35,798 nucleotides of DNA, taken from an uncultured Flavobacteriales bacterium. GTDB taxonomy: Bacteria; Bacteroidota; Bacteroidia; Flavobacteriales_D; Crocinitomicaceae. Positions 14,310 to 35,061 of this stretch are shown here, piece after piece (the stretch's first letter is position 1; each line of letters starts with the position of its first letter). Under the pieces are notes generated by a model. That model ran no database searches and had not been told where the DNA came from. It saw nothing but the letters and a program-made list of their open reading frames with translations. The DNA is taken from positions 1 to 35,798 of the forward strand of contig CAJAVU010000065.1 in assembly GCA_903945495.1 (NCBI GenBank), read 5' to 3'. Position numbers and translations under genes: made by a program.

Positions 14310-14333
14310 AGTAAGCTTTGGATTACTCCTAAG

Positions 14334-14407
14334 CGGTCTGGACGGGACTCGAACCCGCGACCCCATGCGTGACAGGCATGTATTCTAACCAACTGAACTA
14401 CCAAACC
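14334..14407 (-). tRNA. tRNA-Asp (GTC anticodon)
   Basis: On the minus strand the 74-nt gene folds as a full cloverleaf. The acceptor stem GGTTTGG pairs with CCAGACC (one G-T pair) and the discriminator is G. The D-arm region starts TAGTTCAGTTGGTTAGA, the anticodon stem is CATGC/GCATG around CTGTCAC, and the T-arm is GCGGGTTCGAGTCCCGT. The anticodon GTC is at 14371-14373 (GAC on the plus strand). CCA is not encoded; CTT follows. Its 3' end points to the integrase at 12814-14061, as expected for an integrative element using a tRNA 3' end as target. Confidence 0.95.
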
Positions 14408-18254: not shown

Positions 18255-19058
18255 ATGAAATTTATTTTAAGCATTGTAGTAAGCCTTGTAATCGGAAATG
18301 TGTTTTCACAAAATTTTAAGCATTTCTATCGCGAAAACTATAATAAGCTATTTCCTAACAATAAAACGATTCAGATTGAGAAACTATCCCAGCAAAATGA
18401 TAGCTTAAAGCGCTTATCTGATAGTTTGAAAAGGGAACAATCGGTTGCTCTTGAAAAAATCAATTCGTTGAAACGAGATGTAATTGATTTAAAGACCGAA
18501 CTTCACGCTGAGCAGGAAAAAGTAAAAGCAGCCAATTCGAGCAGTACATCCGAAGTTGTGATTTTAAGAGATTCCATTGCTAGGCTGACATTCCCACTTG
18601 TTCAAGTGCGCGAAGAATTAGTTACCAAAAAAGGCGTGCAAGACCCAACACTACTAAACACGTTCAATTGGCGCATGTATCAGTTGGTAGAAACTGGAAC
18701 TCCGGATTATAAAGGACGTTATACATGGACAACTGAACTATTCAAACAAGTTGGCGATACCTTGGTTAAAATCAAAAATGTAGATCTCTTTAAAGCCGAA
18801 AAAATTGCAGACTTAGAAAAGTTAATCAATGATCGCTTGGAAGAAGATTTCAAAGCAATGAAGATTAGCGATGCAGAATGTTTCCAAGGTCGTCGTTACT
18901 ATAAAGCTGTTAAATTAACGGATATGCGTATTTCATTGAGCGATCATTCAGAAATCACATTCGAAATCCTACATGGCTTAAGTGTTGCTTGTTTTGCGGT
19001 AAACGCTTCATCAACAACCTTCAAAATTGAGGAATTAAAAGCGTTTTTTGTGGAGTGA
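18255..19058 (+). CDS. Secreted coiled-coil protein of unknown function
   Basis: The 267-aa product begins with a signal peptide (M-K-F-I-L-S-I-V-V-S-L-V-I-G-N-V-F-S-Q, probable cleavage after S18). A heptad-like coiled coil follows at about residues 42-95, rich in S-L-K-R-L-S-D-S-L-K type repeats, and then a globular C-terminal domain of about 150 residues with no recognised family (F-N-W-R-M-Y-Q-L-V-E, F-Q-G-R-R-Y-Y-K-A-V-K). It is likely periplasmic or exported. It is a single gene with its own -7 box upstream and a hairpin terminator at 19087-19116. Confidence 0.8.
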   Translation: MKFILSIVVSLVIGNVFSQNFKHFYRENYNKLFPNNKTIQIEKLSQQNDSLKRLSDSLKREQSVALEKINSLKRDVIDLKTELHAEQEKVKAANSSSTSEVVILRDSIARLTFPLVQVREELVTKKGVQDPTLLNTFNWRMYQLVETGTPDYKGRYTWTTELFKQVGDTLVKIKNVDLFKAEKIADLEKLINDRLEEDFKAMKISDAECFQGRRYYKAVKLTDMRISLSDHSEITFEILHGLSVACFAVNASSTTFKIEELKAFFVE

Positions 19059-19446: not shown

Positions 19447-19460
19447 TAAAAACGGAAGTG

Positions 19461-20903
19461 ATGAAGCAACCTAGGATACGATACTTTCTCGAACCTCATA
19501 CAGACAGATTTGGAATGCGAACAAGACAAGAACTTGTGATGGCAGAGGTGAACGCTGGATTCATTGAAATCATAAATGGTAAACGAAAATACAAACGATT
19601 TAAAGTAAGTCTGGAGGAACGCATTCATCCAGATAACTTTGGTTATTTGAAGGAAAATTATAAGTTCAATAAATATCTGCTAGAATCATACTCAAATCGC
19701 ACAAAGAAAAGCTCATTACAATTGAAAATGAATCGACTAGAAAATGACGTAATACAGGTTTATCATTACTTTCTATCAAACTTAGAGCAACCAAGTTCTG
19801 AAGAGTTTAAACGAGAATTGCTTACTCGAATGGGCCGCACTTTGCGATACAAGGAAATTCAAACATTCCCTACCTTAAAAGAAGCTATTGCTAAAGTGAT
19901 TGATGATGAACGTAAAATGTTAAGGTCAGCCAGTGATAAAAAAAGAGAAAATACTATAAAAACATACAATACCCTTTTACATTATATTGAACGCTATGAG
20001 CATGTAACGAGCAAGACGTTAGAATTAAATGCATTTGACAAACCGACATATTTACATTTCTGGAAAATTCAAAATGATATAGTAAAAGGCTTAATTGTCT
20101 GTGAGATAGAAGGACAGCGCAAGGTGGCTAAAACTAGTTATGGCATGCTGTCTTCATCAGTCAACAAATATCAAAACTTAATGAAGACACTCATTAAGCG
20201 AACTGGTCACGACATACAACTCGATTTTAATGAAAAAGGTCTTATCGCACAAAAAACAAGTAACCGCAAAGACTTGTACCTGACTTCCGATGAATTGAAC
20301 AAAATAATTAATTTTAAGTCAACAGATTCAAAGTTGGTGCAAGCTCAGGATTATGTAATTCTTGCTAGTATGATGGGCATGCGTCATGAATCTATGTCAG
20401 AAGCATTTGATAAATCTATACAGACCAACGAAAGTAATTCATCAGGTTTCTGTTACATTCATTCAAAACAAAACAAAACCAACACAGAAGCATACATACC
20501 ACTATTCAAGCCAGCACTTGATATTCTGCAAAAGCATGACAACCGTTTTCCAAAATTTCCTGAGAACAGTAAAATAAATAAATACGTTAAGGAGTTATTA
20601 AAAGAAATTGGAATAACTAGAAAGGAGAAATTGAAATTTTTTCCTTATCTGGATAAGCCATTTGAATTGGAAGAACCTATTTACAACTTAATTTCTACAC
20701 ACGATTTCCGTAAAACTTTTTATACTAACTTATCTATTCTGAATGTATCAGAAAGCACAATTGACCTAGTTACACACCCATCCAAATCAAGCGCTAAAAT
20801 GAGTCGCGTTTATGATAAATCGACACTTTTAGACAGAGCTAGAAAGTTCTATAATGAAGTAAGGATAAGGTGTGAAAAACAATCGATATTTTATTTTGAA
20901 TAA
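19461..20903 (+). CDS. Tyrosine recombinase of the second island
   Basis: This 480-aa recombinase has a catalytic domain in the C-terminal third. The first Arg is in M-M-G-M-R-H-E-S-M, the H-x-x-R box is T-H-D-F-R-K-T-F, the second His is in L-V-T-H-P-S-K-S-S, and the nucleophile is Y in S-R-V-Y-D-K-S. The N-terminal half is charged and helical, as in arm- and core-binding domains. Unlike the integrase at 12814-14061 it keeps the first Arg, so the two are not close relatives. ATG 19461 is chosen over GTG 19458. It marks the left part of an accessory region that runs through the restriction-modification genes. Confidence 0.88.
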   Translation: MKQPRIRYFLEPHTDRFGMRTRQELVMAEVNAGFIEIINGKRKYKRFKVSLEERIHPDNFGYLKENYKFNKYLLESYSNRTKKSSLQLKMNRLENDVIQVYHYFLSNLEQPSSEEFKRELLTRMGRTLRYKEIQTFPTLKEAIAKVIDDERKMLRSASDKKRENTIKTYNTLLHYIERYEHVTSKTLELNAFDKPTYLHFWKIQNDIVKGLIVCEIEGQRKVAKTSYGMLSSSVNKYQNLMKTLIKRTGHDIQLDFNEKGLIAQKTSNRKDLYLTSDELNKIINFKSTDSKLVQAQDYVILASMMGMRHESMSEAFDKSIQTNESNSSGFCYIHSKQNKTNTEAYIPLFKPALDILQKHDNRFPKFPENSKINKYVKELLKEIGITRKEKLKFFPYLDKPFELEEPIYNLISTHDFRKTFYTNLSILNVSESTIDLVTHPSKSSAKMSRVYDKSTLLDRARKFYNEVRIRCEKQSIFYFE

Positions 20904-20959: not shown

Positions 20960-21316
20960 ATGAGAGACAAATTTATTCAATTTCGAATCAACGATAGTTC
21001 GAAAAAAGCATTTCAGTTGAATTGCAAAGCCAATAAAAAAAGTATGAGCGAGGTTCTCTTCGAATTCATTAATACATCAACACATCAATATACACAATCG
21101 TGTATTTCTCATTTTGAACGAATAGAAAACTTAGATTTTTCCCCTACCCTTAGAACTCTTTTAATCAACTATTCAATAGGGCTGGATGAAGAATATGCAT
21201 GCATCACCGAAGGCCATCTAATTCAATTATACGAGGAGCTTATTTCGAAAAATGAACTCCATCTTTTATTTGAATGGCATTCATTTCAGAATCGTATACG
21301 CTCTGAGTTCTCATAA
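20960..21316 (+). CDS. Ribbon-helix-helix-like protein, 118 aa
   Basis: The N-terminal ~40 residues (F-I-Q-F-R-I-N-D-S-S-K-K-A-F, then N-K-K-S-M-S-E-V-L-F-E-F-I) have the beta-strand/two-helix pattern of ribbon-helix-helix DNA-binding proteins. The remaining 75 residues are helical without a known family. It starts 57 nt after the integrase on the same strand and may regulate the island's integrase or plasmid-like functions. No antitoxin/toxin partner is evident next to it. Confidence 0.6.
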   Translation: MRDKFIQFRINDSSKKAFQLNCKANKKSMSEVLFEFINTSTHQYTQSCISHFERIENLDFSPTLRTLLINYSIGLDEEYACITEGHLIQLYEELISKNELHLLFEWHSFQNRIRSEFS

Positions 21317-21569: not shown

Positions 21570-21971
21570 ATGAACATTTCAAAAATTTTAAAAAATGGAC
21601 GGAAAATTACCGTCAACAATATTAATATAGATAGCGTTTACGACCGTATTTTTATAGAACCCTCCTCACCAGAAATGATAAATGAATTAATGGACACCTT
21701 TCGCTATCCCTCATGTCAATGGGGTGATTATCGCTCATCTATAATGAGAAAAGATTTTGATAAAATAGCACAAGGAATTCTGCCAGATTTTTTCATATCA
21801 TTATGGTTGACCAGTTCACCTCTTAATGATGATAATTTTGACGGTAGCGAATTAATTATCAGTTTTTTTTCGAATCTAGATATTAGTAAAACATTGGATG
21901 AAATAATAAGTGATGGACTAGACGATATAGATAATGTATATGAGGATTATGCAATGAATTTTGAATTATGA
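21570..21971 (+). CDS. Hypothetical acidic protein, 133 aa
   Basis: The soluble product is acidic, with S-Q-W-G-D-Y-style aromatic residues in the middle (S-C-Q-W-G-D-Y-R-S-S) and a C-terminal D/E-rich stretch (S-D-G-L-D-D-I-D-N-V-Y-E-D-Y). No family is recognised. Acidic small proteins of this kind are often immunity or anti-repressor proteins, but nothing here proves that. Its 3' end overlaps the convergent 489-aa gene by 25 nt. Confidence 0.6.
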   Translation: MNISKILKNGRKITVNNINIDSVYDRIFIEPSSPEMINELMDTFRYPSCQWGDYRSSIMRKDFDKIAQGILPDFFISLWLTSSPLNDDNFDGSELIISFFSNLDISKTLDEIISDGLDDIDNVYEDYAMNFEL

Positions 21972-23416
21972 ATTTGAGATAAAAAAGGTATGTTCAATGA
22001 AAGACTGCAATTTTCAGGAAGTAGTACATGATGGACAGGGTGAAATTTATTTTTAGGATTGTCATTATAGCACCATGTTGTTTTTAATTGGCATTCAAAT
22101 CCGATGAAGACAAAGTAACCTTCTACGAGTTTTATTATTTCTGAGTAATTTTCCTTTCGAATGATAATTGAATCATGCTTCGTTAAGCAGAAATAACCGT
22201 CTTTCTTTATTTTACTTAACAATCCATCAATCATAATCTCAGATTCCTTTTTTTGCAACATGATGGAAAAACTATTATCACCATTATTCTTTTTAAATTC
22301 ATCAATCCATGCTATTAACCTAGGCATTAGTTGTTTTAATTGGAGCTTTTGTTGGCTATTATATTTTCGAGAGCTGAATAATATTTCAAACATTGCGTTT
22401 TTAGCCTCTTTTCTTGATTCTACGCCCAGTAAAGTTGATAAGTATTCATATAGATGCCCAGTAATAGAAAATCGCTTAAATGTCTTGAAATCATGAGAAT
22501 TTAGTTCGGTTTTCAATATCCATGATAAAAAAGCAAATTGGGAATTACTTATGTCAATTTGCACCAATCCATTTTGCCTACAGATTTCATCAACCAATGG
22601 CGAATACATATTTGTTAAGTTGGTGTCCAACCTATTATTGGTGTCATTTCGATTAACATAAAAATTTCCCATTTTAAAATTTTCAATTATGTTTTGATGA
22701 TATATGAAATAGGATAATCTCATCTGATAAATGAAATCATCGAAATCACTAATTACACATTTCTTCTTCCTTAAAATAACGTGTTTACCTTCATTGCTTG
22801 CTAGAATTTTAATATAGTTAAGACTCGAATAATTATCTGAAACGCTTCCATTGATTACATATTGATAGAACCCATCTGGTATCTCATCATCTATTTTAAA
22901 GTCATTTATTTTTAAGTTGATTATAGTGTTGGCTGAAATCTGAATTAGATTTTCATAATTTATTATTAGACTTTTAATATCATTTTTAAACCAATTTTGG
23001 TATTGTCTTATTCCGTTATTAGTATATTTTATTTTATGAGCTATCTTTATATTTATCAGGCTTTTATGATTTTTTTCCATACATAATGGCACAAGGTTAA
23101 ATTCTGTAATGAAATAAGCTGGATTAATTCTATAATGAAAACATCTGCCTTCTTTATAAAAGTCCCTTTCAATAAGATTAGAATCCAAAAGAACATTCAA
23201 CCATTTAGAGTATTTGGTAGAAAAAGTACTATCCAGAAATGTCTTAGGTTTTGCTGTGAAGTAAAAGATATTTCCAAATTTCCTGTAGGAATCACGCATC
23301 AGGATTTGAATAAACTTTATTGCATGAGATTTATTTGTTTCTGTTAAATCTAATTCATTGATTGCCTTAAAAAGGCTATTTGGTATTAAAATATTGCTAA
23401 TAATTTTTGATTTCAT
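21947..23416 (-). CDS. Polymerase-like protein with family-A DNA polymerase motifs and a winged-helix N-terminus
   Basis: This 489-aa protein is not normally annotated, but four motifs match the palm and fingers of family-A DNA polymerases in order. N-N-R-L-D-T-N-L-T-N at ~260-269 corresponds to T-G-R-L-S-S-x-x-P-N-L-Q-N. Motif A is I-D288-I-S-N-S-Q, cf. D-Y-S-Q. Motif B is R335-x3-K339-x3-F343-x3-F347, with the R/K/F/Y spacing of the O-helix. Motif C is K-H414-D415-S-I-I. The first ~105 residues look like a winged helix (F-S-T-K-Y-S-K-W-L-N-V-L ... C-F-H-Y-R-I-N). No 3'-5' exonuclease motifs are visible. It may be the replication initiator/polymerase of the element. Activity is inference. 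Confidence 0.7.
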   Translation of the reverse strand: MKSKIISNILIPNSLFKAINELDLTETNKSHAIKFIQILMRDSYRKFGNIFYFTAKPKTFLDSTFSTKYSKWLNVLLDSNLIERDFYKEGRCFHYRINPAYFITEFNLVPLCMEKNHKSLINIKIAHKIKYTNNGIRQYQNWFKNDIKSLIINYENLIQISANTIINLKINDFKIDDEIPDGFYQYVINGSVSDNYSSLNYIKILASNEGKHVILRKKKCVISDFDDFIYQMRLSYFIYHQNIIENFKMGNFYVNRNDTNNRLDTNLTNMYSPLVDEICRQNGLVQIDISNSQFAFLSWILKTELNSHDFKTFKRFSITGHLYEYLSTLLGVESRKEAKNAMFEILFSSRKYNSQQKLQLKQLMPRLIAWIDEFKKNNGDNSFSIMLQKKESEIMIDGLLSKIKKDGYFCLTKHDSIIIRKENYSEIIKLVEGYFVFIGFECQLKTTWCYNDNPKNKFHPVHHVLLPENCSLSLNIPFLSQIHNSKFIA

Positions 23417-23513: not shown

Positions 23514-23813
23514 TCAATTTCCCTTGGCATAAGCAACCCAATTTACTATTAAACGAAAAACTTCTGTTTCATCATCTATTTCCTTAATGAAGCCAATTTC
23601 GTTTTCAGATTCAATGCGCAGCAGAATCGATTGATTCAGAAGACTACATTTGAAAATGGTGATGTAACCTGGTCTCCCAAATCCATTGAAATGAAACTGT
23701 ATCAACTTAAGTTTTCGGTCAGAAAACACCTCTACTACTTTGAAGTCATAAGCACCAATGGCTATTAATGACGTTTTTTCTTTTTCACTAAAAAAGGGAA
23801 TATTATTATCCAT
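23514..23813 (-). CDS. Hypothetical protein, 99 aa
   Basis: The soluble, mixed alpha/beta product has F-K-V-V-E-V-F-S-D-R-K-L-K-L near residue 25 and G-F-G-R-P-G-Y-I-T-I-F near 45. No family is recognised. It starts divergently from the HTH gene at 23923, with about 110 nt between them, and precedes the polymerase-like gene by 97 nt on the same strand. Confidence 0.55.
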   Translation of the reverse strand: MDNNIPFFSEKEKTSLIAIGAYDFKVVEVFSDRKLKLIQFHFNGFGRPGYITIFKCSLLNQSILLRIESENEIGFIKEIDDETEVFRLIVNWVAYAKGN

Positions 23814-24108: not shown

Positions 24109-25827
24109 ATGAAAAACGTAAAAGAATCAGCAAATTTTATTTGGTCAATTGCAGACCTACTTCGAGGTGACTACAAGCAAAGTGACTATGGGAAGATTAT
24201 TTTACCGTTAACCGTAATCAGACGATTGGATTGCGTGCTAGAAAGCACTAAAGCGGATGTACTTAAAAAGTATGACCAGCTGAAAACAACCAACGTTGAG
24301 AACCTTGACCCGATTTTAAACAAAACAGCTGGTTTCAAGTTCCACAACAAAAGCCAATTCGATTTCGAGAAACTGATTGCCGACCCAAATAACATTGCTT
24401 CGAATCTAAGAAACTACATCAACGGATTCTCAGAAGATGCAAGAGAAATCATTGAACAATTTGAGTTTGAAAACCAAATCAATAAGATGGATGAAGCCAA
24501 TTTGTTGTTTATGGTGGTGAAACGTTTTCAAGAAATTGACTTGCATCCAGACCGTATTTCAAGTATGGAAATGGGATACATGTTTGAGGAGTTAATTCGG
24601 AAATTCGCTGAAATTTCCAATGAAACAGCGGGCGAGCATTTTACTCCAAGGGAGGTAATCAAGTTGATGGTGAACATTTTGTTTTTGAATGACCGTGATA
24701 TTCTAACCAAGAAAGGAATCACCAAAACTATATATGATAGCTGTGCTGGCACTGGAGGCATGTTATCGGTAGCGGAAGAATACTTGCATGAGTTGAATCC
24801 AGATGCACGTTTGGAGGTATTTGGTCAAGAACTGAATCCAGAATCGTATGCCATTTGTAAGTCGGATTTATTGATTAAAGGACAAAACGCATCCAACATT
24901 AAAAAAGGAAATAGTATCTCAGAAGACCAACTTTCCAACGAGAAATTCGATTACTTGATTACCAATCCACCGTTCGGTGTGAAATGGGAAAAGTTTGGTA
25001 AGAAGGTAAAAGAAGAACACGATACATTGGGTCATGGTGGACGTTTTGGAGCTGGACTTCCATCTGTTGGTGATGGTTCATTCCTTTTCTTGATGCATCT
25101 TATGAGCAAAATGAAACCAGAAGGTTCAAGACTTGCTATTGTATTCAATGGTTCACCTCTTTTCTCTGGTTCACCAAGCAAAACAAAGAACGAGAGTAGT
25201 ATTCGCCAATGGATTATCGAGAACGACTTCCTAGAGGCTGTAATTGCATTACCTAACCAGTTGTTCTACAATACTGGAATTAGTACTTATGTTTGGGTGA
25301 TATCTAATAAGAAGCCAGTTGAACGTAAAGGGAAAGTACAATTGATTAATGCAGTTGACTTATACAAGAAAATGAGTAAATCATTGGGTGATAAACGTAA
25401 TGAGTTATCAGATGACCATATTGCTGAAATCACTAAAATTTATGGTGAGTTCAAACAATCTGGTTACTCAAAGATATTTGATAATAAAGCTTTTGGTTAT
25501 GCAAAAGTAACTGTTGAACGACCAGAACGTAATGTGAAGGGTGAAATCGTAAAAGATAAAAAAGGAAATCCAAAACCAGATTCATCGTTGAGAGATACTG
25601 AGAATATTCCATTAACGATGGATATTCAAGAGTATATGGAGAAGGAAGTACTTCCACATGTACCAGATGCATGGGTAGACCATTCTAAAACCAACATAGG
25701 TTACGAAATTAACTTTACCAAGTATTTCTATCAATACAAACCATTACGTTCTTTAGAAGATATTAGAGCGGATATTATGGCTATTGAACAAGAAACGGAT
25801 GGTTTATTGAAAGAAGTAATCGGTTAG
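24109..25827 (+). CDS. hsdM: Type I restriction-modification DNA methyltransferase subunit
   Basis: The 572-aa product is a typical HsdM. It has an N-terminal helical HsdM_N region, H-F-T-P-R-E-V-I at residues 177-184, SAM motif I D-S-C-A-G-T-G-G at 210-217 and the catalytic N-P-P-F at 286-289 (m6A methyltransferase). Its likely target is adenine in the sequence recognised by HsdS (25830-27173), with which it forms the modification core. It directly abuts the HTH gene, and hsdS starts 2 nt after its stop. The length is near the family's usual ~500-580. Confidence 0.96.
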   Translation: MKNVKESANFIWSIADLLRGDYKQSDYGKIILPLTVIRRLDCVLESTKADVLKKYDQLKTTNVENLDPILNKTAGFKFHNKSQFDFEKLIADPNNIASNLRNYINGFSEDAREIIEQFEFENQINKMDEANLLFMVVKRFQEIDLHPDRISSMEMGYMFEELIRKFAEISNETAGEHFTPREVIKLMVNILFLNDRDILTKKGITKTIYDSCAGTGGMLSVAEEYLHELNPDARLEVFGQELNPESYAICKSDLLIKGQNASNIKKGNSISEDQLSNEKFDYLITNPPFGVKWEKFGKKVKEEHDTLGHGGRFGAGLPSVGDGSFLFLMHLMSKMKPEGSRLAIVFNGSPLFSGSPSKTKNESSIRQWIIENDFLEAVIALPNQLFYNTGISTYVWVISNKKPVERKGKVQLINAVDLYKKMSKSLGDKRNELSDDHIAEITKIYGEFKQSGYSKIFDNKAFGYAKVTVERPERNVKGEIVKDKKGNPKPDSSLRDTENIPLTMDIQEYMEKEVLPHVPDAWVDHSKTNIGYEINFTKYFYQYKPLRSLEDIRADIMAIEQETDGLLKEVIG

Positions 25828-25829
25828 TT

Positions 25830-27173
25830 ATGAAGAAATACAATAACTATAAAGATTCTGATGTGGAATGGATTGGGAAGATTCCAAGTCATTGGATAAT
25901 GCAAAGAATCGATTGGGTATCAAAAATTGTAAGAGGAAATACAGCGTTTAAAAAGGATGAATTACTTGATGCTGGAGAATATATTGCATTACAATATGGA
26001 AAAACATATAAGGTAGATGTTGTTGATGACAGTTTTAATTTCTATGTAAATAGTGAGTTTTTTAATGAGAGTCAAGTTACGACTAAAGGTGATACTATTC
26101 TGATTTCAACTTCAGAAACAGTAGAAGACTTAGGTCACACATGTTTTTATAACAATCAAAATGTAGGGTTACTAGGTGGAGAACAAATATTACTAAAACC
26201 AAATCGCAAATTTTTACATGAAAAGTATCTCTATCATTACTCACGACAGTTTGGTTCGGAATTAAGAAGATATGCTAGAGGTTTAAAAGTTTTTAGATTT
26301 AACACTAGTGACTTAAAACAACTCTTCATTGCAATTCCAACACTTGAGGAACAAATCTCTATCGCCAACTACCTAGACCACAAAACATCCCAAATAGACC
26401 ATTTAATTGCAAAGAAAGAGCAATTCATCAAGTTACTAGAAGAAGAGCGTGTAGCGGTCATTAATCAAGCTGTAACAAAAGGTTTAAACCCAAATGTAAC
26501 GATGAAAGATTCTGGTGTGGAATGGTTGGGTAAAATTCCAGAGCATTGGGAGAGAGCAAGAATCAAAACATTAGTAGCAATAAAAGTATGTGATGGACCA
26601 CATGAGACACCAGAGTGGAAAGAAGAAGGAATTCCTTTCATATCAGCAGAAGCAATAAAAGGAAACCAAATAGACTTAAATTACAAAAGAGGATTTATTT
26701 CTGAAGAACAACATTTAGAATATTGTAAAAAATCAAAAGTTCAAAAAGGTGATATTCTTTTCTGTAAATCTGGTTCAACTACTGGTAAATCTGCATTAGT
26801 TGAAAATGATGATGAATTTGGTATTTGGTCACCATTGGCAATAATTCGTGTTAATGAAAAAAAAATATCAAATCGATTTATGTTCCAAAGTATTCAATCA
26901 TCACTTTTCAAGAATCAAGTTGAAACTTCTTGGACATTTGGTACTCAACCAAATATTGGAATGGGAGCACTGGAAAACTTATGGATTGCTATTCCACCTC
27001 TTAATGAACAAGTTTTAATAGATGAATATTTAAGAACCGAAATAACCAAGTTTGAGAATATTATATTAAAGACTTTTCAAGAAGTCGATTTATTAAAAGA
27101 ATACAAAATAGCATTGATAAGTGAGGTTGTTACTGGTAAGGTTGACGTTTCGACAAGCTCAACGCAAGTGTAA
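25830..27173 (+). CDS. hsdS: Type I restriction-modification specificity subunit
   Basis: The 447-aa product has the two-fold HsdS layout. A first target-recognition half begins V-E-W-I-G-K-I-P-S-H-W. A central conserved helix contains E-E-Q-I-S-I-A-N-Y-L-D-H-K and L-I-A-K-K-E-Q-F. A second half begins V-E-W-L-G-K-I-P-E-H-W near residue 228, and the C-terminal helix contains N-E-Q-V-L-I-D-E-Y-L. Two different TRDs mean a bipartite recognition sequence, which cannot be read from the protein. It sits between hsdM and the DUF262 gene on one strand. Confidence 0.95.
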   Translation: MKKYNNYKDSDVEWIGKIPSHWIMQRIDWVSKIVRGNTAFKKDELLDAGEYIALQYGKTYKVDVVDDSFNFYVNSEFFNESQVTTKGDTILISTSETVEDLGHTCFYNNQNVGLLGGEQILLKPNRKFLHEKYLYHYSRQFGSELRRYARGLKVFRFNTSDLKQLFIAIPTLEEQISIANYLDHKTSQIDHLIAKKEQFIKLLEEERVAVINQAVTKGLNPNVTMKDSGVEWLGKIPEHWERARIKTLVAIKVCDGPHETPEWKEEGIPFISAEAIKGNQIDLNYKRGFISEEQHLEYCKKSKVQKGDILFCKSGSTTGKSALVENDDEFGIWSPLAIIRVNEKKISNRFMFQSIQSSLFKNQVETSWTFGTQPNIGMGALENLWIAIPPLNEQVLIDEYLRTEITKFENIILKTFQEVDLLKEYKIALISEVVTGKVDVSTSSTQV

Positions 27174-27194
27174 GAAATGAAATATTGAATTGAT

Positions 27195-29018
27195 ATGAAA
27201 AAAATATTAGGAGCACCAAAAAGTATTAGAGAATTATTTACTGGAGTTAAATACAGTATCCACTATTACCAAAGGGAATATCAGTGGCAACGGAAACAAA
27301 TTGAAGAGTTAATTGAAGATTTAACTGGTGAATTTTTAGAATATTACTCTGAAACACATGAACGAAATGAGGTAGAGAAATATGGTCACTATTTCATGGG
27401 TTCTGTAGTTCTTACAGAAGATGAAAATGCGATTATCGATGGTCAACAAAGACTTACATCTTTGAGCTTAGTACTTCTATTTATAACCAAACATCTTCAA
27501 GATACGAATGATAAAGCAGAAGTTTTAAACCTTATTTATTCTCAAAAATATGGTAAAACTACTTTCAATATCAATGTTGAAGAGCGAACAAAATGCTTAG
27601 AAGCGATTATCAATGATGAAATTTTTGAACCAGAAGGTCATCCAGAAAGTGTTCAAAATATTTGGCATAGATACAATGATATAATTGAATTAATGATGGA
27701 TGCTGTTCCAGAAGAAGCGCTTCCATTTTTTAAAGATTGGTTGATAGATAATGTACAATTCATAAAAATTGTTGCTCAAACAGAACAAGACGCACATAAA
27801 ATATTTGTTTCAATGAATGACCGTGGTCTTAGCCTAACTGCAACCGAGATGTTGAAAGGCTATTTGCTTTCGGAAATTGCTGACAATGATGAAAGACTAA
27901 AAGCAAACGAGCTTTGGAAAGCTAAAATGCTAGAATTAAAAGCTCTGGGAAAAGAGCAAGAAAGTGATTGCATTAAAACATGGCTTAGGTCACAATATGG
28001 TGAAACAATTCGTGAGCGTAAAAGAAATGCAACACCAGGCGATTTTGACATTATTGGAACGGCATTTCACAAATGGTTGAGAGAAAACGGAAATAATATT
28101 GGATTAAAAAAATCAGTTGATTACAATGATTTTGTCCAAAAAGAATTTATCCTATTTTCAAATACATACGTAAGAATTACGCAATACTCTGAGAAATTGA
28201 CTGAAGGGTTTGAATACATTTTCTATAATTCAAATAGAAACTTTACATTACAACCATTATTGTTGTTGGCAAGTTTGGATAAAAATGACACAAAAGATAT
28301 TATTGATTCTAAGTTAAAAATTGTCTCTTGCTTTTTAGACCAATATATTTCAATTAGAATATTCAATTATAAGTCTCTTGATTATTCAGCTATGACATAC
28401 GCAATGTTTATGATGGCAAAGAAAATCAGACAAAAATCATCGATTGAATTAGTTGAGATTTTAACAAATGAAATTACAACAATGGAATTCAATTTAGATG
28501 GGATTATTCGATTTGACTTGAATGGTTGGACGAAACGATATATGCTTCATCAACTTGCCAGAATAACTCATTTTGTAGAAGAACAAAGTGGAAAAGACAC
28601 CAAATTTGATGTTTATGTTAACCGTTCAATAAAGAATCCATATGATATTGAACACATTTGGGTTGACCATTTTGAGAGGTATTCAGAAGCTTTTGAATCA
28701 GAAGAAGAATTCCAAAGAACAAGAAATATGTTCGGAGATTTGGTCTTGCTACCACAAGATATAAATAGGAGTTTAAATGATTCTAACTACTCAAAGAAAC
28801 TACCAAAATATTTTGGTCAAAATTTATTAGCATCTTCACTAAACGAAAATTGCTACGAAAACAATCCGAATTTTTTACGATTTGCCAATGCAAACAATTT
28901 GAAGTTTAATCCGAGCAATGACTTTAAAAAAGAAACAATTAAGGAAAGACAAAACCTTTATTTAGAAATAGCAAAATTGATTTGGAATTCAGATAATTTG
29001 CGAAAATATTTGATGTAA
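27195..29018 (+). CDS. DUF262/DUF1524 protein (GmrSD-like) within the type I operon
   Basis: This 607-aa protein begins with a DUF262 ParB-like domain (Y-Q-R-E-Y-Q-W near residue 28, D-G-Q-Q-R-L-T-S at 82-89, S-M-N-D-R-G-L-S-L near 206). It ends with a DUF1524 HNH-like region (P-Y-D-I-E-H-I-W, later F-G-D-L-V-L-L and a trailing N-x-S-x-Y-S-K-K). GmrSD enzymes, which cut modified phage DNA, have the same two domains fused. It lies between hsdS and the AlbA_2 gene, which suggests an anti-phage role next to, and maybe complementing, type I restriction. The usual H-P-Q after I-E-H is replaced by W-V-D. Confidence 0.9.
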   Translation: MKKILGAPKSIRELFTGVKYSIHYYQREYQWQRKQIEELIEDLTGEFLEYYSETHERNEVEKYGHYFMGSVVLTEDENAIIDGQQRLTSLSLVLLFITKHLQDTNDKAEVLNLIYSQKYGKTTFNINVEERTKCLEAIINDEIFEPEGHPESVQNIWHRYNDIIELMMDAVPEEALPFFKDWLIDNVQFIKIVAQTEQDAHKIFVSMNDRGLSLTATEMLKGYLLSEIADNDERLKANELWKAKMLELKALGKEQESDCIKTWLRSQYGETIRERKRNATPGDFDIIGTAFHKWLRENGNNIGLKKSVDYNDFVQKEFILFSNTYVRITQYSEKLTEGFEYIFYNSNRNFTLQPLLLLASLDKNDTKDIIDSKLKIVSCFLDQYISIRIFNYKSLDYSAMTYAMFMMAKKIRQKSSIELVEILTNEITTMEFNLDGIIRFDLNGWTKRYMLHQLARITHFVEEQSGKDTKFDVYVNRSIKNPYDIEHIWVDHFERYSEAFESEEEFQRTRNMFGDLVLLPQDINRSLNDSNYSKKLPKYFGQNLLASSLNENCYENNPNFLRFANANNLKFNPSNDFKKETIKERQNLYLEIAKLIWNSDNLRKYLM

Positions 29019-29019
29019 A

Positions 29020-29061
29020 ATGGCAAAAGGAATACAGAACAAACCTTTGAATCATGAGTAA
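29020..29061 (+). other. Relic of an hsdR 5' end
   Basis: Directly after the DUF262 stop, ATGGCAAAAGGAATACAGAAC begins a 13-codon frame (M-A-K-G-I-Q-N-K-P-L-N-H-E) that matches the hsdR start at 30769 (ATGGCGAAAGGAATACA..ACAGAAC) but soon stops. It marks a junction where the DUF262 and AlbA_2 genes were spliced between hsdS and hsdR. Confidence 0.5.
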
Positions 29062-30721
29062 CATGACTGAACAAGAATTAAAAAAGTATTTGCAAACAGA
29101 ATTTCCACAGGAAAACGAAGCTTGTGAATGGAAAGAATACAAATCATTGAAGCATTCTTTTTCGGGTACTTCTGGAAATGATATTATTTCTTATGTTTCG
29201 GCTCTCGCAAATATGGAAGGCGGAAGTCTTGTGATTGGCATTGAAGATAACACGCATAATATTATTGGAATTCAAGATTTCAATAATCATACAGCTCAAA
29301 ATATCCGTTTACGGATTCTTTCAAAATGTCCAAATTTAGATTCTGAGCATTTCACTATTGAAGATATTGAAACGAGCGATTCAAAGAAAAAGGTTTGGAT
29401 ATTCCACATCCCAAAACATTTAGCTAGGAGACCAGTATCAGCTCATGAACGCTATTGGCAACGAGTGGATGACAGTCTGGTGGAGTTGAGAAAAGAAAGA
29501 CTTGAAGCCATTTTAAAAGAGCCAATATTTACAAACGATGACTGGTCGGCTCAAATTGTACAAAATGCAACATTGGATGATTTAGAACCTAAAGCAATTG
29601 AAAAAGCTAGGAAAGAATACAAAGAGAAAAATCCAAGAAAAGCAATAGAGTGTGATACATGGGATGATATTACTTTTTTAAATAAAGCGAAAATTACATT
29701 ACAAGGAAAAATAACCAACACCGCTTTACTTTTATTGGGTAAAGAAGAAGCTTCTCATTTTTTGAGTCCAGCAGTTGCTAAAATTTCATGGATTTTGAAA
29801 GACGAGAATAATGTGGAATTAGACTATGAACATTTTGGCATTCCCTTTTTGTTAAGTTCGTCAGAAGTTTTTAGTCGCATAAGAAATTTAACTTATAGGT
29901 ACATTAAAGATAATTCGCTTTTCCCTACTGAAATTAAAATGTATGATGCTTTTGTAATACGTGAAGCACTTCATAATTGTATTGCACATCAAGATTATAA
30001 TTTACAAGGACGAATAACTGTTGTTGAAAAGCCAGATGAGTTGTTATTTAGTAATCTTGGGGAATTCATTCCAAAGAGTATAGAAAGAGTGATTGAACAA
30101 GATGCACCTCAAGAATACTATCGCAACCAATTTTTAGCCGATGCCATGGTTAACTTGAATATGATTGATACAATTGGAAGTGGAATTAAAAGAATGTTTT
30201 TGAAACAAAAAGAGCGTTTCTTCCCTATGCCAGATTTTGATTTGTCTTTACCTAATAAAGTAGCTGTAAATATTACAGGTAGAATTTGGGATGAAAATTA
30301 TACCAAATTATTAATGAATAAAACGGATTTAGAATTAAAGACGGTTGTTCTATTAGATAGAGTTCAGAAAAACTTACCTATTGATGATGAGGAAATTAAA
30401 GAATTGAAAAAGTTTGGATTAATAGAAGGTCGTAAACCTAATCTGCATGTTTCTTCTGCTGTGGCAAAAATAACAAACGATAAAGCGTCTTACATCAGAA
30501 AAAGAGGAATAGATGATGAATATTGCAAAAAGATAATATTGGATTATTTGAAAGAATTTAAGGAAGGTAAAAAAGATGATTTTGAAAAAACACTTTTAGA
30601 CAAACTTCCAGAGATTTTAGACATTTCTCAAAAGAAAAATAAGATTAAAAACATTCTTCAATCGATGAAAAATCAAGGTAAAATAAAGGTTGAAGGCAAG
30701 TTTTGGAAAATATCTAAGTAA
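29054..30721 (+). CDS. AlbA_2/Schlafen-type ATP-binding protein within the type I operon
   Basis: This 555-aa protein has an N-terminal AlbA_2 (Schlafen-like) domain: C-E-W-K-E-Y near residue 23, I-S-Y-V-S-A-L-A-N-M-E-G-G-S-L-V-I-G-I at 45-63, R-P-V-S-A-H-E-R-Y-W near 128. It continues with an HATPase_c_4-like region carrying E-A-L-H-N-C-I-A-H-Q-D-Y and G-S-G-I-K-R-M-F. The C-terminal ~150 residues are helical and charged. Such proteins are regular accessory members of type I restriction loci, where their role (regulation or antiviral RNA/DNA binding) is not settled. It starts 35 nt after the DUF262 stop and ends 47 nt before hsdR. Confidence 0.88.
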   Translation: MSNMTEQELKKYLQTEFPQENEACEWKEYKSLKHSFSGTSGNDIISYVSALANMEGGSLVIGIEDNTHNIIGIQDFNNHTAQNIRLRILSKCPNLDSEHFTIEDIETSDSKKKVWIFHIPKHLARRPVSAHERYWQRVDDSLVELRKERLEAILKEPIFTNDDWSAQIVQNATLDDLEPKAIEKARKEYKEKNPRKAIECDTWDDITFLNKAKITLQGKITNTALLLLGKEEASHFLSPAVAKISWILKDENNVELDYEHFGIPFLLSSSEVFSRIRNLTYRYIKDNSLFPTEIKMYDAFVIREALHNCIAHQDYNLQGRITVVEKPDELLFSNLGEFIPKSIERVIEQDAPQEYYRNQFLADAMVNLNMIDTIGSGIKRMFLKQKERFFPMPDFDLSLPNKVAVNITGRIWDENYTKLLMNKTDLELKTVVLLDRVQKNLPIDDEEIKELKKFGLIEGRKPNLHVSSAVAKITNDKASYIRKRGIDDEYCKKIILDYLKEFKEGKKDDFEKTLLDKLPEILDISQKKNKIKNILQSMKNQGKIKVEGKFWKISK

Positions 30722-30733
30722 TCATCAAAGATA

Positions 30734-30766
30734 TTTTTTAGACATTTTTTTAGACATTTTTAGATA
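30734..30766. repeat. Three tandem T-run/AGACA repeats before hsdR
   Basis: TTTTTTAGACA, TTTTTTTAGACA and a partial TTTTTAGATA lie head to tail in the 47 nt before the hsdR ATG. They may alter hsdR translation by slippage or be a regulatory site; T-run length could vary between strains. Confidence 0.4.
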
Positions 30767-30768
30767 TT

Positions 30769-33700
30769 ATGGCGAAAGGAATACATACAGAACTAACATT
30801 TGAACAAGCAATCGAATCCAACTTGTTGGAGCAAGGTGGTTATGTGAAAGGTAGTTCAACAGACTTCGATGTGCAACAAGGATTGTTTCCGAATTACATC
30901 ACTGATTTTTTGAAGCAATCACAACCAAAGGCTTGGGATAAACTCGTTACTATCCACAAGGACGAAGCTGAGAAAAAAGTCTTGCTTCGATTGGTTAAAG
31001 AAATTGATTTGCGAGGTGTTTTAGATGTAATAAGAAAAGGATTCACCGATTACGGTGTGAAGTTCCAGATGGCATATTTTAAGCCAGAAAGCACCTTAAA
31101 TCCAGAAGCAGACGAATTGTATCTTACCAATCATTTGGCAGTGACCAGACAGCTATATTACGAGCGAGTAGGCAAGAATTCATTGGACATGGTGCTTTCT
31201 TTGAATGGATTGCCAATTGCAACCATAGAGCTTAAAAATCAGTTTTCTGGACAGTCTGTAGAGAATGCCAAGAAGCAGTATGTATATGACCGTGAACCGA
31301 ACGAACCGATATTTCAATTCAAGAAAAGAACCTTAGTTCACTTCGCTGTGGATACCGATGAGGCTTTCATGACAACGAAACTGGACGGAAAGAACACAAG
31401 ATACTTACCATTTAATTTAGGTTATAACAATGGAGCTGGAAATCCACCAAACCCATATGGATATAGAACCTCGTATCTTTGGGAACAGGTTTGGACAAAA
31501 GATAGTTTCATGGATATTATTGGCAAGTTCCTTCACCTTAGCGTGGAAGAATTTGAGTTGAATGGTGTTAAAAAGAAAAAAGAAACCATCATTTTCCCTC
31601 GTTTCCATCAGATGCAAGTCGTTCGCAAAGTAACAACTGATGCAAGACAAAGTGGTGCTGGAAAAAACTATTTGATTCAGCATTCTGCTGGTTCTGGGAA
31701 ATCCAATTCAATCGCATGGCTATCTTATAGGTTGTCTAGTTTACATGATGAGGCTAATAATAGAATCTTTGATTCAGTTATTGTGATTACAGACCGTAAA
31801 GTATTGGATTCACAATTACAGAATACTATTTACCAATTTGAACACAAGGATGGTGTTGTTCAAAAAATCGACAAGGATTCAACCCAATTAGCAAATGCTA
31901 TTTCAGCTGGTTCAAATATCATTATTACGACTCTACAAAAATTTCCTTTTATCCTGGATAAAATTGGAGAAATACCAGCGAGAAAATATGCAGTAATCAT
32001 TGATGAAGCTCATAGTTCGCAAGGTGGTGAAGCCACCAAAAAAATGAAGGAAGTATTATCAGCACAGTCATTGGAAGAAGCTGAGAAAGATGAGGCTTAC
32101 ACAGGATTGGAAGAAGATGCTGAGGACGAAATCAGAAAGTCAATGTTGGCGAGAGGGAAGCAGAAAAACCTTAGTTTCTTTGGTTTTACCGCTACACCAA
32201 AACCAAAAACAGTTGAAGTGTTCGGAACGATGGGTGCGAGTGGCAAGCCAGAACCGTTTCACTTATACTCAATGAAACAAGCTATTGAAGAAGGGTTTAT
32301 TCTCGATGTGCTTAAGAACTATACAACATATAAAACCTACTTCAAACTGTCCAAAGAAATTGAGGACGACCCAAAAGTAAATAAGAAGAAAGCTTCCAGG
32401 GCAATTGGACGATTCATGTCATTGCATCCACATAATTTGGCACAGAAAACCGAAGTGATGGTGGAACATTTCCGACAAGTGGTTTCGAAAAAAATAGGTG
32501 GAAAAGCAAAAGCAATGGTGGTGTCAAGCTCTCGTTTGCATGCTGTAAGATATAAAGAAGAATTCGATAAGTACATCAAGGATAAAGGATATACCGATGT
32601 TAAAACAATTGTAGCATTTTCTGGAAAGGTAATCTATGGTAGCGCTCCAGAAGGTGTGACCGAGGTTGAAATGAATGGATTTGTCGAAAAGGAATTACCA
32701 AGAAAATTTGCATCGGATGAATATCAACTCTTATTGGTAGCAGACAAATACCAAACAGGATTTGACCAACCATTGTTGCATACCATGTATGTAGATAAGA
32801 AATTATCTGGAGTAAAGGCGGTACAAACATTATCCAGATTGAACAGAATGTGCGCTGGCAAAGAAGATACTTTTGTATTGGATTTTGCAAATGATACTGA
32901 TGAAATATTGGAATCATTTCAACCATATTATGAACTTACCTCAATCAAGGAGAATTCAGACCCAAATTATCTGTACGATTTGAAAGCGGAGTTGGATAAA
33001 GCAAATGTTATATGGGAAACAGAGGTGGACAATTTCTGTAATCTATATTTCAAATCAGCGAAATCATTGACTGTTTCTGACCAAGCAAAATTAAACGCAT
33101 ACATTGACCCAGCTGTGGAAAGATTCAAACAACTTCCAGAGGAGAATTCGGACAAGAATGTAATTGGTACGGAGGTCACAAAAGAAGACTTCAAGAATAC
33201 AATGCAGAGCTTCAATAGAACGTATTCGTTTCTAACTCAAATTATGCCTTTCACAGATGTAGACCTAGAGAAGCTATTTACTTACACTAAATTCCTGTAC
33301 AAAAAACTACCAAGAACCAGCCAGAACGATAAATTCAAATTGGGTGACGAGGTTTCCCTGGAATACTATAGACTGCAAAAGATTGCTGAACAGAGTATCT
33401 TTATGGAAAGTCAAAGCGTTTATGAATTAGACGGTGGTGGTCAAGCTGGTTTGCGTTTAACGAAAGAAGATGAGGCAAATTTGTCAGAAATCATCGAAGT
33501 GTTAAACAAAAAGTTCCAAACTGAATTTAATACAGCAGATAAGCTATTCTTTGACCAAATAGAAGAAGACATGGTGCTGGATGAAAAGCTTATGGAGCAA
33601 GCAAAGAACAACCCAATAGAAAACTTCAAGTTTGGTTTCGATGATATGTTTATGGATAAACTAATTGGACGAATGGACCAGAATCAAGATATTTTCACCA

Positions 33701-33780
33701 AAATGATGGACGATAAAGAATTCGGTGGATTGGTTAAAGGATATATGTTGAAAAAGGTTTATGAGAGGTTGAGTAGGTAA
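30769..33780 (+). CDS. hsdR: Type I restriction endonuclease and translocase subunit
   Basis: The 1003-aa product has an N-terminal nuclease domain with D140 and E154-L-K156 (I-E-L-K-N), a superfamily 2 motor with Walker A G-S-G-K-S at 308-312, D-E-A-H at 412-415, F-T-A-T-P, and a later helicase motif T-G-F-D-Q-P and L-S-R-L-N-R. It cuts unmodified DNA after translocation, in complex with HsdM and HsdS. It starts 47 nt after the AlbA_2 gene. Its first codons are echoed by a relic at 29020-29061, which suggests hsdR once followed hsdS or the DUF262 gene more directly. Confidence 0.96.
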   Translation: MAKGIHTELTFEQAIESNLLEQGGYVKGSSTDFDVQQGLFPNYITDFLKQSQPKAWDKLVTIHKDEAEKKVLLRLVKEIDLRGVLDVIRKGFTDYGVKFQMAYFKPESTLNPEADELYLTNHLAVTRQLYYERVGKNSLDMVLSLNGLPIATIELKNQFSGQSVENAKKQYVYDREPNEPIFQFKKRTLVHFAVDTDEAFMTTKLDGKNTRYLPFNLGYNNGAGNPPNPYGYRTSYLWEQVWTKDSFMDIIGKFLHLSVEEFELNGVKKKKETIIFPRFHQMQVVRKVTTDARQSGAGKNYLIQHSAGSGKSNSIAWLSYRLSSLHDEANNRIFDSVIVITDRKVLDSQLQNTIYQFEHKDGVVQKIDKDSTQLANAISAGSNIIITTLQKFPFILDKIGEIPARKYAVIIDEAHSSQGGEATKKMKEVLSAQSLEEAEKDEAYTGLEEDAEDEIRKSMLARGKQKNLSFFGFTATPKPKTVEVFGTMGASGKPEPFHLYSMKQAIEEGFILDVLKNYTTYKTYFKLSKEIEDDPKVNKKKASRAIGRFMSLHPHNLAQKTEVMVEHFRQVVSKKIGGKAKAMVVSSSRLHAVRYKEEFDKYIKDKGYTDVKTIVAFSGKVIYGSAPEGVTEVEMNGFVEKELPRKFASDEYQLLLVADKYQTGFDQPLLHTMYVDKKLSGVKAVQTLSRLNRMCAGKEDTFVLDFANDTDEILESFQPYYELTSIKENSDPNYLYDLKAELDKANVIWETEVDNFCNLYFKSAKSLTVSDQAKLNAYIDPAVERFKQLPEENSDKNVIGTEVTKEDFKNTMQSFNRTYSFLTQIMPFTDVDLEKLFTYTKFLYKKLPRTSQNDKFKLGDEVSLEYYRLQKIAEQSIFMESQSVYELDGGGQAGLRLTKEDEANLSEIIEVLNKKFQTEFNTADKLFFDQIEEDMVLDEKLMEQAKNNPIENFKFGFDDMFMDKLIGRMDQNQDIFTKMMDDKEFGGLVKGYMLKKVYERLSR

Positions 33781-34506: not shown

Positions 34507-35061
34507 TTATAAATTAAGGTAGATGTTGTTTAGCTCTTCTTGTCGAATTCCTAGATACTTCTTGGTGATAGACATGGAAGAGTGGTTAAACAAATCCATA
34601 AGATACATGAGTGCTTTTTCACTTTCGTTGTTCTGGAAGTAAACTCGTCTTCCAAAGGTTTTACGCATCGAATGTGATGAGATGTTTAATCCTTTTTCTT
34701 TGATAAGGCTTTTAAGCATTAGGTTTAGATATTGATTGCTGATAACCGTGCCCTTCTGCGTAATAAATGGAGAACCATCTTGGTATTTACCAATCTTGTT
34801 TACCATGTCCTTTATCTTATCATTGATTGCAATTGTTTTTGTTTTCTTGGTTTTACCTTCTGTTATTGTCAATGTATCTTTTCGCAAATCCTCAAAAGTT
34901 AATTTAAGAACATCCCCGCATCTTAGACCAGTATTTATAGCCACGGCAATGTATGCACCAATGACTTTGCTTTTTTCGTCACTTAGCATTTTCGTTGCTT
35001 TGAACATCATTTTTTCATAGTCCAGATAATCTGATGTTGTTTTAACTCCCATTGCACTCAT
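34507..35061 (-). CDS. Minimal tyrosine recombinase (catalytic domain only)
   Basis: This 184-aa protein consists of the recombinase catalytic domain. The first Arg is in N-T-G-L-R-C-G-D-V, the H-x-x-R box is H-S-M-R-K-T-F, the second His is in L-F-N-H-S-S, and the Tyr is in T-K-K-Y-L-G-I. All catalytic residues are present but the core-binding domain is missing. Short integrases of this kind occur in phages and elements of Bacteroidota, so it is probably complete rather than truncated. A 13-bp inverted repeat (35096-35136) lies 35 nt upstream of its ATG, a good candidate for its own recombination or operator site. Confidence 0.8.
   Translation of the reverse strand: MSAMGVKTTSDYLDYEKMMFKATKMLSDEKSKVIGAYIAVAINTGLRCGDVLKLTFEDLRKDTLTITEGKTKKTKTIAINDKIKDMVNKIGKYQDGSPFITQKGTVISNQYLNLMLKSLIKEKGLNISSHSMRKTFGRRVYFQNNESEKALMYLMDLFNHSSMSITKKYLGIRQEELNNIYLNL

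What the first reader, a model, noticed from the sequence alone, without database searches (positions are those of the whole stretch)
21947..23416. Compact protein with family-A DNA polymerase motifs fused to a winged helix
Motifs corresponding to TGRL/PNLQN, A (D288-x-S-x-S-Q), B (R-x3-K-x3-F-x3-F with exact O-helix spacing) and C (H414-D415) appear in the right order in only 489 residues, with no exonuclease domain and a replication-initiator-like N-terminus. This suggests an element-encoded initiator-polymerase, an unusual design for bacterial integrative elements.
Basis: partly seen in the sequence, partly recalled or inferred. Interest (0 to 1): 0.75.

Follow-up and report, generated by a model that had tools for sequence, protein, structure and literature searches.

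The report
Mini family-A polymerase in mobile element
Next to an integration enzyme, this bacterial DNA carries a gene for a stripped-down polymerase joined to what looks like a DNA-binding domain; relatives occur in other bacteria and in tailed and giant phages, which suggests that such mobile elements bring their own tool for starting or finishing DNA copying, though no activity has been tested.

Summary
AlphaFold models of it (pLDDT 75) and of a Flavobacterium homologue (pLDDT 93) match T7 DNA polymerase and Pol I large fragments best. No exonuclease domain is apparent. Residues 1-113 look like a generic winged helix; "replication-initiator-like" is not shown.

The family is widespread (19 of 395 genomes of the phylum; phages to 735 kb). 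A recombinase lies within 6 kb in 18 of 34 bacterial loci. A same-genus genome carries a syntenic element with the integrase replaced by a serine recombinase and the polymerase by a divergent homologue.

Precedents exist: it is homologous to phage divPolA2 (profile E 5e-14) and resembles TV-Pol (2008), predicted prim-pols. I read it as an element-encoded DNA polymerase/primase that starts or completes copying of the excised or incoming element; activity, priming and origin recognition are inferred. New variant of a known kind.

The parts
21947..23416 (-). 489-aa protein: winged-helix-like N-terminus + family-A polymerase core
23078..23416 (-). residues 1-113: winged-helix-like domain (E5-12, helices 13-20, 26-47, 58-65, 69-78, strands 82-87/92-97/106-113)
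   Evidence: secondary structure of the AlphaFold model; same order in the pLDDT-93 model of the Flavobacterium homologue; winged-helix Foldseek rows at E 0.26 and above
22673..22834 (-). residues 195-248: two long helices before the beta-hairpin, thumb-like (block pLDDT 53-80)
   Evidence: naming as thumb is inference
22631..22633 (-). R262, conserved Arg of the hairpin before the palm (pairs with TGRL of Pol I)
22553..22555 (-). D288, motif A (DISNSQ; family consensus DIxNSQP)
22400..22414 (-). R335-x3-K339, motif B / O-helix
22172..22177 (-). H414-D415, motif C (HDS)
19458..20903 (+). tyrosine recombinase (integrase), 481 aa
   Evidence: Pfam Phage_integrase E 0.0012, below the curated cut-off; PHROG integrase E 2.6e-10
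20960..21316 (+). 118-aa ORF, shared with the element of a same-genus genome (77% identity); start looks like a ribbon-helix-helix (by eye, no database hit)
21570..21971 (+). 133-aa ORF, convergent, overlaps the last 25 bases of the polymerase ORF; shared with the same-genus element
23514..23813 (-). 99-aa ORF just upstream of and co-directional with the polymerase; shared with the same-genus element (74%); candidate partner, fold not tested
24109..33780 (+). neighbouring restriction cargo: hsdM-like and hsdS-like ORFs (by eye), GmrSD, Schlafen-AlbA_2, HsdR; membership in the element not proven

Best explanation
The gene encodes a compact family-A nucleic acid polymerase without an exonuclease domain (winged-helix-like DNA-binding domain, thumb-like helix pair, palm and fingers) that belongs to an integrase-carrying mobile element. 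Most likely it makes DNA on the element's own DNA: the winged helix holds the enzyme on element or host DNA, and the polymerase core primes and/or extends new strands when the element is excised or has entered as single strand, after which host polymerases take over. Shown by computation: fold, catalytic residues and their conservation, homology to phage divPolA2, recombinase association (moderate), and a syntenic element with both recombinase and polymerase replaced. Inferred: that it is catalytically active, that it uses dNTPs, that it can prime, what the winged helix binds, and when it acts.
For: Palm/fingers fold: best PDB rows are T7 DNA polymerase, E 3e-5 (window model), and Pol I large fragments, E 3e-6, all 50 rows listed of 90 at E up to 0.001 being family-A DNA polymerases (Flavobacterium homologue, pLDDT 93). 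In the viral library the best rows are an unnamed 409-aa protein, E 8e-21, and a 'Putative DNA polymerase I' of an uncultured marine phage, E 5e-14. Catalytic set conserved in rows not chosen by motif: R262 23, D288 22, K339 23, D415 23 of 23. Profile E 2.5e-4 to a pooled Pol I + T7/SP6 DNA polymerase profile, 0.39 to an integrase control. The host genome has its own Pol I (G000:C21), so this is an extra polymerase. A recombinase lies within 6 kb in 18 of 34 bacterial loci; 2 of 20 control 18-kb windows hold any (Fisher p 0.0014). Same-genus contig L194: three small ORFs collinear, a serine recombinase in place of the integrase, a divergent homologue in the polymerase slot (hhalign E 8.9e-11). 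SCCmec CCPol-MP, a family-A mobile-element polymerase, primes de novo (PMC7581432, abstract and section 10 read).
Against: No helicase or known replication gene was recognised beside it: no ORF over 200 aa with a Walker-A pattern lies within 6 kb of the window gene (a crude screen), unlike SCCmec or D5-linked TV-Pols. 16 of 34 loci have no recombinase within 6 kb; in the five genomes that supplied the controls only 1 of 6 family loci (L202, L203, L204, L207, L208, L209) has one. The pooled DNA polymerase profile match weakens when split (Pol I alone 0.016, T7/SP6 alone 0.027), and six T7-like RNA polymerases give 0.029; the same-genus homologue itself does not match the DNA polymerase profile (E 0.59). 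Element ends and an empty site were not found. Nine recurrent neighbours of the phage copies show no replication domain in Pfam. No OB-fold partner was shown. One member (L027) has E at the D288 column; three have F and one Y at H414.
Confidence: 0.6

Rival explanations
1. It is a single-subunit RNA polymerase or RNA primase (T7/mitochondrial RNA polymerase-like) that transcribes element genes or lays RNA primers; the winged helix reads promoters.
For: Motif C is HDS, as I recall for T7 RNA polymerase, not the HDE of most DNA polymerases, and motif A has Q at the place of the Klenow ribose gate E710 (recalled; for the family residue). Yutin et al. left DNA or RNA polymerase open for divPolA2 (PMC11348598 section 13). 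Weak PHROG RNA polymerase hits in two relatives, E 0.12 and 0.05. Unpooled profile E-values hardly separate RNA polymerase (0.029) from T7/SP6 DNA polymerase (0.027) or Pol I (0.016).
Against: Only the pooled DNA polymerase profile reaches E 2.5e-4. Foldseek ranks DNA polymerases first and mitochondrial RNA polymerase at E 0.45, none among the 50 rows listed for the second model. PDB is richer in DNA polymerases, so this is not decisive.
Confidence: 0.15
2. It is a repair, gap-filling or anti-phage defence polymerase carried as cargo rather than the element's replication protein.
For: It lies close to a restriction cluster (24109-33780); Rice raised a defence role for PolA-SSB primases (PMC10061031 discussion); divPolA2 is extra to the phages' own polymerase (PMC11348598 section 13).
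Against: With three small ORFs and a recombinase it is kept between two elements of one genus. Whether the restriction genes belong to that core is open: contig L194 ends at the 99-aa ORF.
Confidence: 0.15
3. It is a catalytically dead palm protein that only binds DNA or regulates excision.
For: Rice found mobile-element RRM/palm proteins without the catalytic residues (PMC10061031 section 3.2); here 1 of 92 rows has E at D288 and 4 of 92 have F or Y at H414.
Against: Both aspartates, K339 and R262 are kept in at least 91 of 92 rows, the window protein included.
Confidence: 0.05

Closest known systems
divPolA2 of Caudoviricetes (Yutin et al. 2024, PMC11348598; PHROG phrog_4756)
   Same: Homologous by profile over residues 35-447 (hhalign E 4.9e-14, prob 98, six divPolA2 sequences); relative L040 and the same-genus polymerase hit phrog_4756 at 2e-8 and 5e-7, over about 50 residues around motif C; about 420-490 aa, palm without exonuclease, own N-terminal globular domain.
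   Different: divPolA2 was reported from phages that also carry a regular polymerase; this one is beside an integrase in a bacterial genome, lies on a separate branch with motif A DIxNSQP (quick tree, weak root support), and its N-terminus looks like a winged helix.
TV-Pol family (Iyer et al. 2008, PMC2579912)
   Same: 400-600 aa, hairpin Arg, two palm Asp, RxxxK fingers, helix pair before the hairpin, no exonuclease, linked to integrase or resolvase and restriction genes; members reported from Bacteroidetes and Planctomycetes among others.
   Different: TV-Pols carry an all-helical N-terminal domain or a C-terminal D5 helicase, or stand alone; here a winged-helix-like N-terminus and no helicase. 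The one sequence I took for a published TV-Pol (Ma-LMM01 MAP_030, chosen by its transposase neighbours) gives no significant profile match (E 0.063).
SCCmec CCPol-MP and PolA-SSB primases (PMC7581432, PMC10061031)
   Same: Family-A polymerase on a recombinase-bearing genomic island; works like a candidate for priming.
   Different: Those with a full polymerase domain keep part or all of the 3'-5' exonuclease domain, pair with an OB-fold protein and a helicase, and were all found in Bacillota; none of these was shown here.
Bacterial PolA1/PolA2/PolA3 groups (Timinskas et al. 2026, PMC12926913, abstract, section 15 and passages seen)
   Same: Family-A palm and fingers.
   Different: The groups described in that section are not exonuclease-less, winged-helix forms; supplements were not seen.

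Membership tests
Family-A polymerase superfamily | Right-hand palm/fingers fold | tested here: met
   Foldseek T7 DNAP E 3e-5, Pol I E 3e-6; predicted models only
Family-A polymerase superfamily | Motifs A (D), B (R-x3-K) and C (HD) in order | tested here: met
Family-A polymerase superfamily | Match to Pfam DNA_pol_A (PF00476) | tested here: not met
   No PF00476 hit for the protein at E up to 10 or for it and 10 relatives at E up to 1; only profile-profile and fold comparison reach the superfamily
Family-A polymerase superfamily | Template-directed nucleotide incorporation | not testable with these tools
   needs purified protein
TV-Pol | Hairpin with conserved Arg, two palm Asp, RxxxK in fingers | tested here: met
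   R262 23/23, D288 22/23, D415 23/23, K339 23/23, R335 20/23; strands 254-256/263-265
TV-Pol | Thumb of two antiparallel helices | tested here: inconclusive
   two long helices stand in the right order; their packing was not seen
TV-Pol | Conserved Asp in the fingers module | tested here: inconclusive
   none among the invariant or nearly invariant columns listed
TV-Pol | Standalone, or all-helical N-terminal domain, or C-terminal D5 helicase | tested here: not met
   alpha/beta winged-helix-like N-terminus instead; no D5 helicase seen
TV-Pol | Neighbouring integrase, resolvase or transposase | tested here: met
   window: integrase 1 kb away; family: 18 of 34 loci within 6 kb
TV-Pol | Sequence kinship to published TV-Pols | tested here: inconclusive
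   only MAP_030 of Ma-LMM01, assumed to be one; E 0.063, no profile hit in that record
divPolA2 | Homology to barbavirus/Vibrio phage divPolA2 | tested here: met
   hhalign E 4.9e-14; phrog_4756 hits of relatives; no direct hit of the window protein
divPolA2 | Groups inside the divPolA2 clade | tested here: inconclusive
   six divPolA2 form their own branch (99) apart from the 78 family rows, but the split from them has support 75 and branches are long
PolA-SSB primase | Adjacent OB-fold SSB partner and helicase | tested here: inconclusive
   99-aa ORF adjacent, fold not tested; no Walker-A ORF over 200 aa within 6 kb

The most novel reading that the evidence does not exclude
A one-protein replication starter: the winged helix recognises an origin on the excised or incoming element and the fused family-A core synthesises DNA there de novo without a separate primase, SSB partner or helicase. 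Recombinase and polymerase types are exchanged in place between elements, and the same enzyme family serves integrative elements, small tailed phages and phages of 600-735 kb.
Probability: 0.22. Interest if true: 0.78.

Novelty: new variant of a known kind. Interest (0 to 1): 0.52.

Why it matters
It adds a large branch without a Pfam family to the minimal family-A polymerases, ties phage divPolA2 (PHROG 'unknown function') to integrase-linked genes in Bacteroidota, Ignavibacteriota and Planctomycetota, and offers a 418-aa homologue from a named Flavobacterium strain with a confident model. That makes the 2008 prediction that such minimal polymerases are primase-polymerases testable in a second setting besides SCCmec.

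Tried and rejected
Sequence searches with the single protein: nothing significant in Pfam or PHROGs and nothing in PDB, nothing in plasmids (relatives; same-genus polymerase, which also found nothing in phages). PDB by profile: nothing. IMG/VR scan with the single protein: nothing; the 11-row alignment reached the family. Weak hits of single relatives that I cannot explain and gave no weight: GGDEF_2 E 0.0004, a virion protein PHROG E 0.0016.

Empty site and element ends: a host gene (18255-19058) is found in 10 of 26 genomes, the own included; in six stretches fetched from other genomes little beyond that gene aligns. Direct repeats in 13900-35798 gave no convincing att pair. Element limits stay open.

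Helicase partner: a Walker-A pattern screen found an ORF over 200 aa within 6 kb in 11 of 34 loci, none in the window; AAA_24 and DUF3871 genes (families named in L142, shared by clustering with L137 and L141) lie near in three loci.

RNA polymerase reading: kept as rival. 'Rep-like' N-terminus: unsupported. Tree: only the quick tree was obtained, the careful search did not finish; 14 of 100 rows, all viral, were left out and many branches are long, so I use it only for the mixing of viral and bacterial rows. Scans for more divPolA2 in IMG/VR found none; those for MAP_030 found near-copies that I did not use.

Rows dropped before counts: near-copies at 85% identity, the fragment L002, and four weak hits (L028-L031) before A3; one of these, L029, was later seen to be a relative of the same-genus polymerase. 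The second, 121-aa piece of the split L141 gene was left out of the 92 rows. The recombinase profile was seeded from the bacterial loci themselves. Two locus pairs are near-copies (L120/L121, L129/L131); without one of each, 16 of 32 against 2 of 20, p 0.003.

Full report
What is there. The ORF at 21947-23416 on the minus strand is intact, 489 aa, ATG start. Its sequence gives no significant Pfam or PHROG hit and no PDB hit; it and 10 relatives scanned one by one give no DNA_pol_A hit at E up to 1.

The motifs are real. tblastn with the protein found six uncultured phage records of 595-735 kb, one further genome among 60 relatives and four further genomes among 395 of the window's phylum (the tool names no phylum, I take it for Bacteroidota from the named homologues). 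An 11-row profile then matched 19 of 395 genomes of the phylum, the window's own included. In IMG/VR 112 of 140 candidate stretches encoded relatives (80 kept), in GTDB genomes 23 of 89, among them Flavobacterium, Pontibacter, Rufibacter, Hymenobacter, Mucilaginibacter, Chryseobacterium, Ignavibacteria and Planctomycetota. In a 92-row alignment K339 is kept in 92, D288, R262 and D415 in 91, H414 in 87. Because the scans used a motif-A pattern, I recounted on the 23 rows not chosen so: R262 23, D288 22, K339 23, D415 23, E391 23, H414 21, R335 20. Profile to profile, the family aligns with a pooled Pol I plus T7/SP6 DNA polymerase profile at E 2.5e-4 with the expected residues paired (R262 with TGRL, D288 with DYSQ, R335/K339 with the O-helix, HD with VHDE). 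Split, Pol I alone gives 0.016 and T7/SP6 DNA polymerase 0.027, no better than six T7-like RNA polymerases at 0.029; an integrase control gives 0.39. So the sequence evidence by itself is modest, and the fold carries the case.

The fold. AlphaFold with 64 rows gave pLDDT 75, pTM 0.71; residues 251-450 have block means of 82-97, the stretch 115-195 and the tail are poor. Best solved matches are T7 DNA polymerase (E 3e-5), Aquifex Pol I, apicoplast polymerase and Pol theta, 4 rows at E up to 0.001; TM-scores are low (0.25-0.36 on the query for the first eight); mitochondrial RNA polymerase comes at E 0.45. In the viral library the best rows are an unnamed 409-aa protein (E 8e-21), a 'Putative DNA polymerase I' of an uncultured marine phage (E 5e-14) and, lower, a barbavirus 'DNA polymerase' (E 1e-4). 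A second model, the Flavobacterium notoginsengisoli homologue with 71 rows, has pLDDT 93 and pTM 0.89; 90 PDB rows reach E 0.001, and the 50 listed are all family-A DNA polymerases, mostly Bst and Taq large fragments, first at E 2.8e-6, TM 0.42-0.48 on the query. I saw secondary structure and matches, not coordinates: both models have the order of a winged helix in the first 110 residues, then helices, a helix pair like a thumb, a hairpin, palm and fingers, with no exonuclease domain apparent. The winged-helix rows of Foldseek are generic, at E 0.26 and above, so 'replication-initiator-like' is not shown.

The setting. A tyrosine recombinase lies 1 kb away (19458-20903). On the other side are an HTH gene and a restriction cluster (24109-33780). 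The host has a normal Pol I on another contig. Among 34 bacterial loci with the gene or its divergent form, 18 have a recombinase within 6 kb; of 20 control windows of 18 kb, 2 have any (Fisher p 0.0014, or 0.003 without near-copies). Against this: the controls come from five genomes, in which only 1 of 6 family loci has a recombinase near, and the recombinase profile was seeded from the family loci. The association is therefore moderate, and some loci are short contigs.

A swapped twin. In a genome of the same genus (64% complete), contig L194 carries the 118-, 133- and 99-aa ORFs in the same order (77% and 74% identity for the first and last). Its recombinase is a large serine recombinase (Resolvase E 7e-13), and between the 129-aa and 99-aa ORFs, on the same strand as the window's polymerase, stands another 469-aa protein, plus a 524-aa ORF on the other strand. 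That 469-aa protein and its 40%-identical relative in another genome are distant homologues: profile E 8.9e-11 to the family and 2.4e-8 to divPolA2, the family profile hits the relative at 1.8e-12, and phrog_4756 is hit at 4.7e-7 around motif C. Against the DNA polymerase profile the pair gives only E 0.59. So the polymerase slot is kept while the enzyme and the recombinase type change, which argues for a core role of the polymerase in the element's life.

Phage side. Viral and bacterial rows are mixed in the quick tree: at least 6 changes are forced by well-supported branches, and the window protein pairs with L040 (99), with the caution that branches are long. L040 is on a 27.6-kb IMG/VR contig with a terminase-like ORF (by eye). 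In 51 distinct viral loci a 460-aa ORF recurs in 33 and an ORF of up to 218 aa in 32; the examples scanned have no Pfam and no convincing PHROG match.

How it most likely works. Shown: fold (predicted), residues, homology, moderate recombinase association, slot conservation in one pair. Inferred: it polymerises DNA on the element. Without an exonuclease or a helicase it is unlikely to be a processive replicase; a starter or gap-filler role, as shown for CCPol-MP of SCCmec (PMC7581432, abstract and section 10 read) and predicted for TV-Pol (PMC2579912, whole main text read), fits best. The winged helix would supply DNA binding that MP supplies in SCCmec. Activity, nucleotide choice and priming are untested.

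Compared with what is known. Nearest by sequence is divPolA2 (PMC11348598, section 13 and passages read), E 4.9e-14. Nearest by biology is TV-Pol; several TV-Pol features are met, its N-terminal domain is not, and kinship to a published TV-Pol sequence could not be settled. Rice's PolA-SSB paper (PMC10061031) was seen in its abstract, introduction, methods, sections 3.1-3.2 and discussion. The 2026 survey of bacterial polymerases (PMC12926913; abstract, section 15 and passages) describes PolA1, PolA2, PolA3 and PolA1-like groups. Seven paper searches showed no description of this winged-helix branch; of their listings I opened five papers. Most subscription journals are not held, and Iyer et al. 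list Bacteroidetes members (Cytophaga, Polaribacter, Psychroflexus) that I could not compare, so some members may already be among theirs.

Verdict. Observation confirmed; interpretation partly supported; a new variant of a known kind, of moderate interest, with a testable bolder reading.

Noticed in passing
L018:1483-3540 (G146 of the search): A 686-aa family member carries a C-terminal GIY-YIG (E 0.001) and NUMOD1 (E 2e-10) region, a polymerase-homing-nuclease fusion, unlike the 2008 statement that TV-Pols never fuse to nucleases.
   Followed up: no
L141:7320-8608, Draconibacterium orientale: The homologue is split over two overlapping ORFs in different frames, so it looks broken in this genome.
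   Followed up: no
L003 3738-5057 and 6739-7218; other viral loci: An ORF just upstream (up to 460 aa) and one just downstream (up to 218 aa) of the phage polymerase recur in 33 and 32 of 51 distinct viral loci, with no Pfam match for the examples scanned: an unnamed conserved gene trio.
   Followed up: partly
phrog_4756; L187 3001-4305 (Vibrio phage ICP1): PHROG phrog_4756, labelled unknown function, is the divPolA2 polymerase family; ICP1 phages carry a copy annotated as hypothetical.
   Followed up: partly
window:12814-14061, 14333-14407, 34507-35061: A second tyrosine recombinase next to a tRNA-Asp gene and a third, short one: the window seems to hold more than one integrated element.
   Followed up: no
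L137, L141, L142: The polymerase gene lies near an AAA_24 ATPase (phrog_1366 in L142) and a DUF3871 gene in three Bacteroidota loci, a possible prophage replication cluster.
   Followed up: partly
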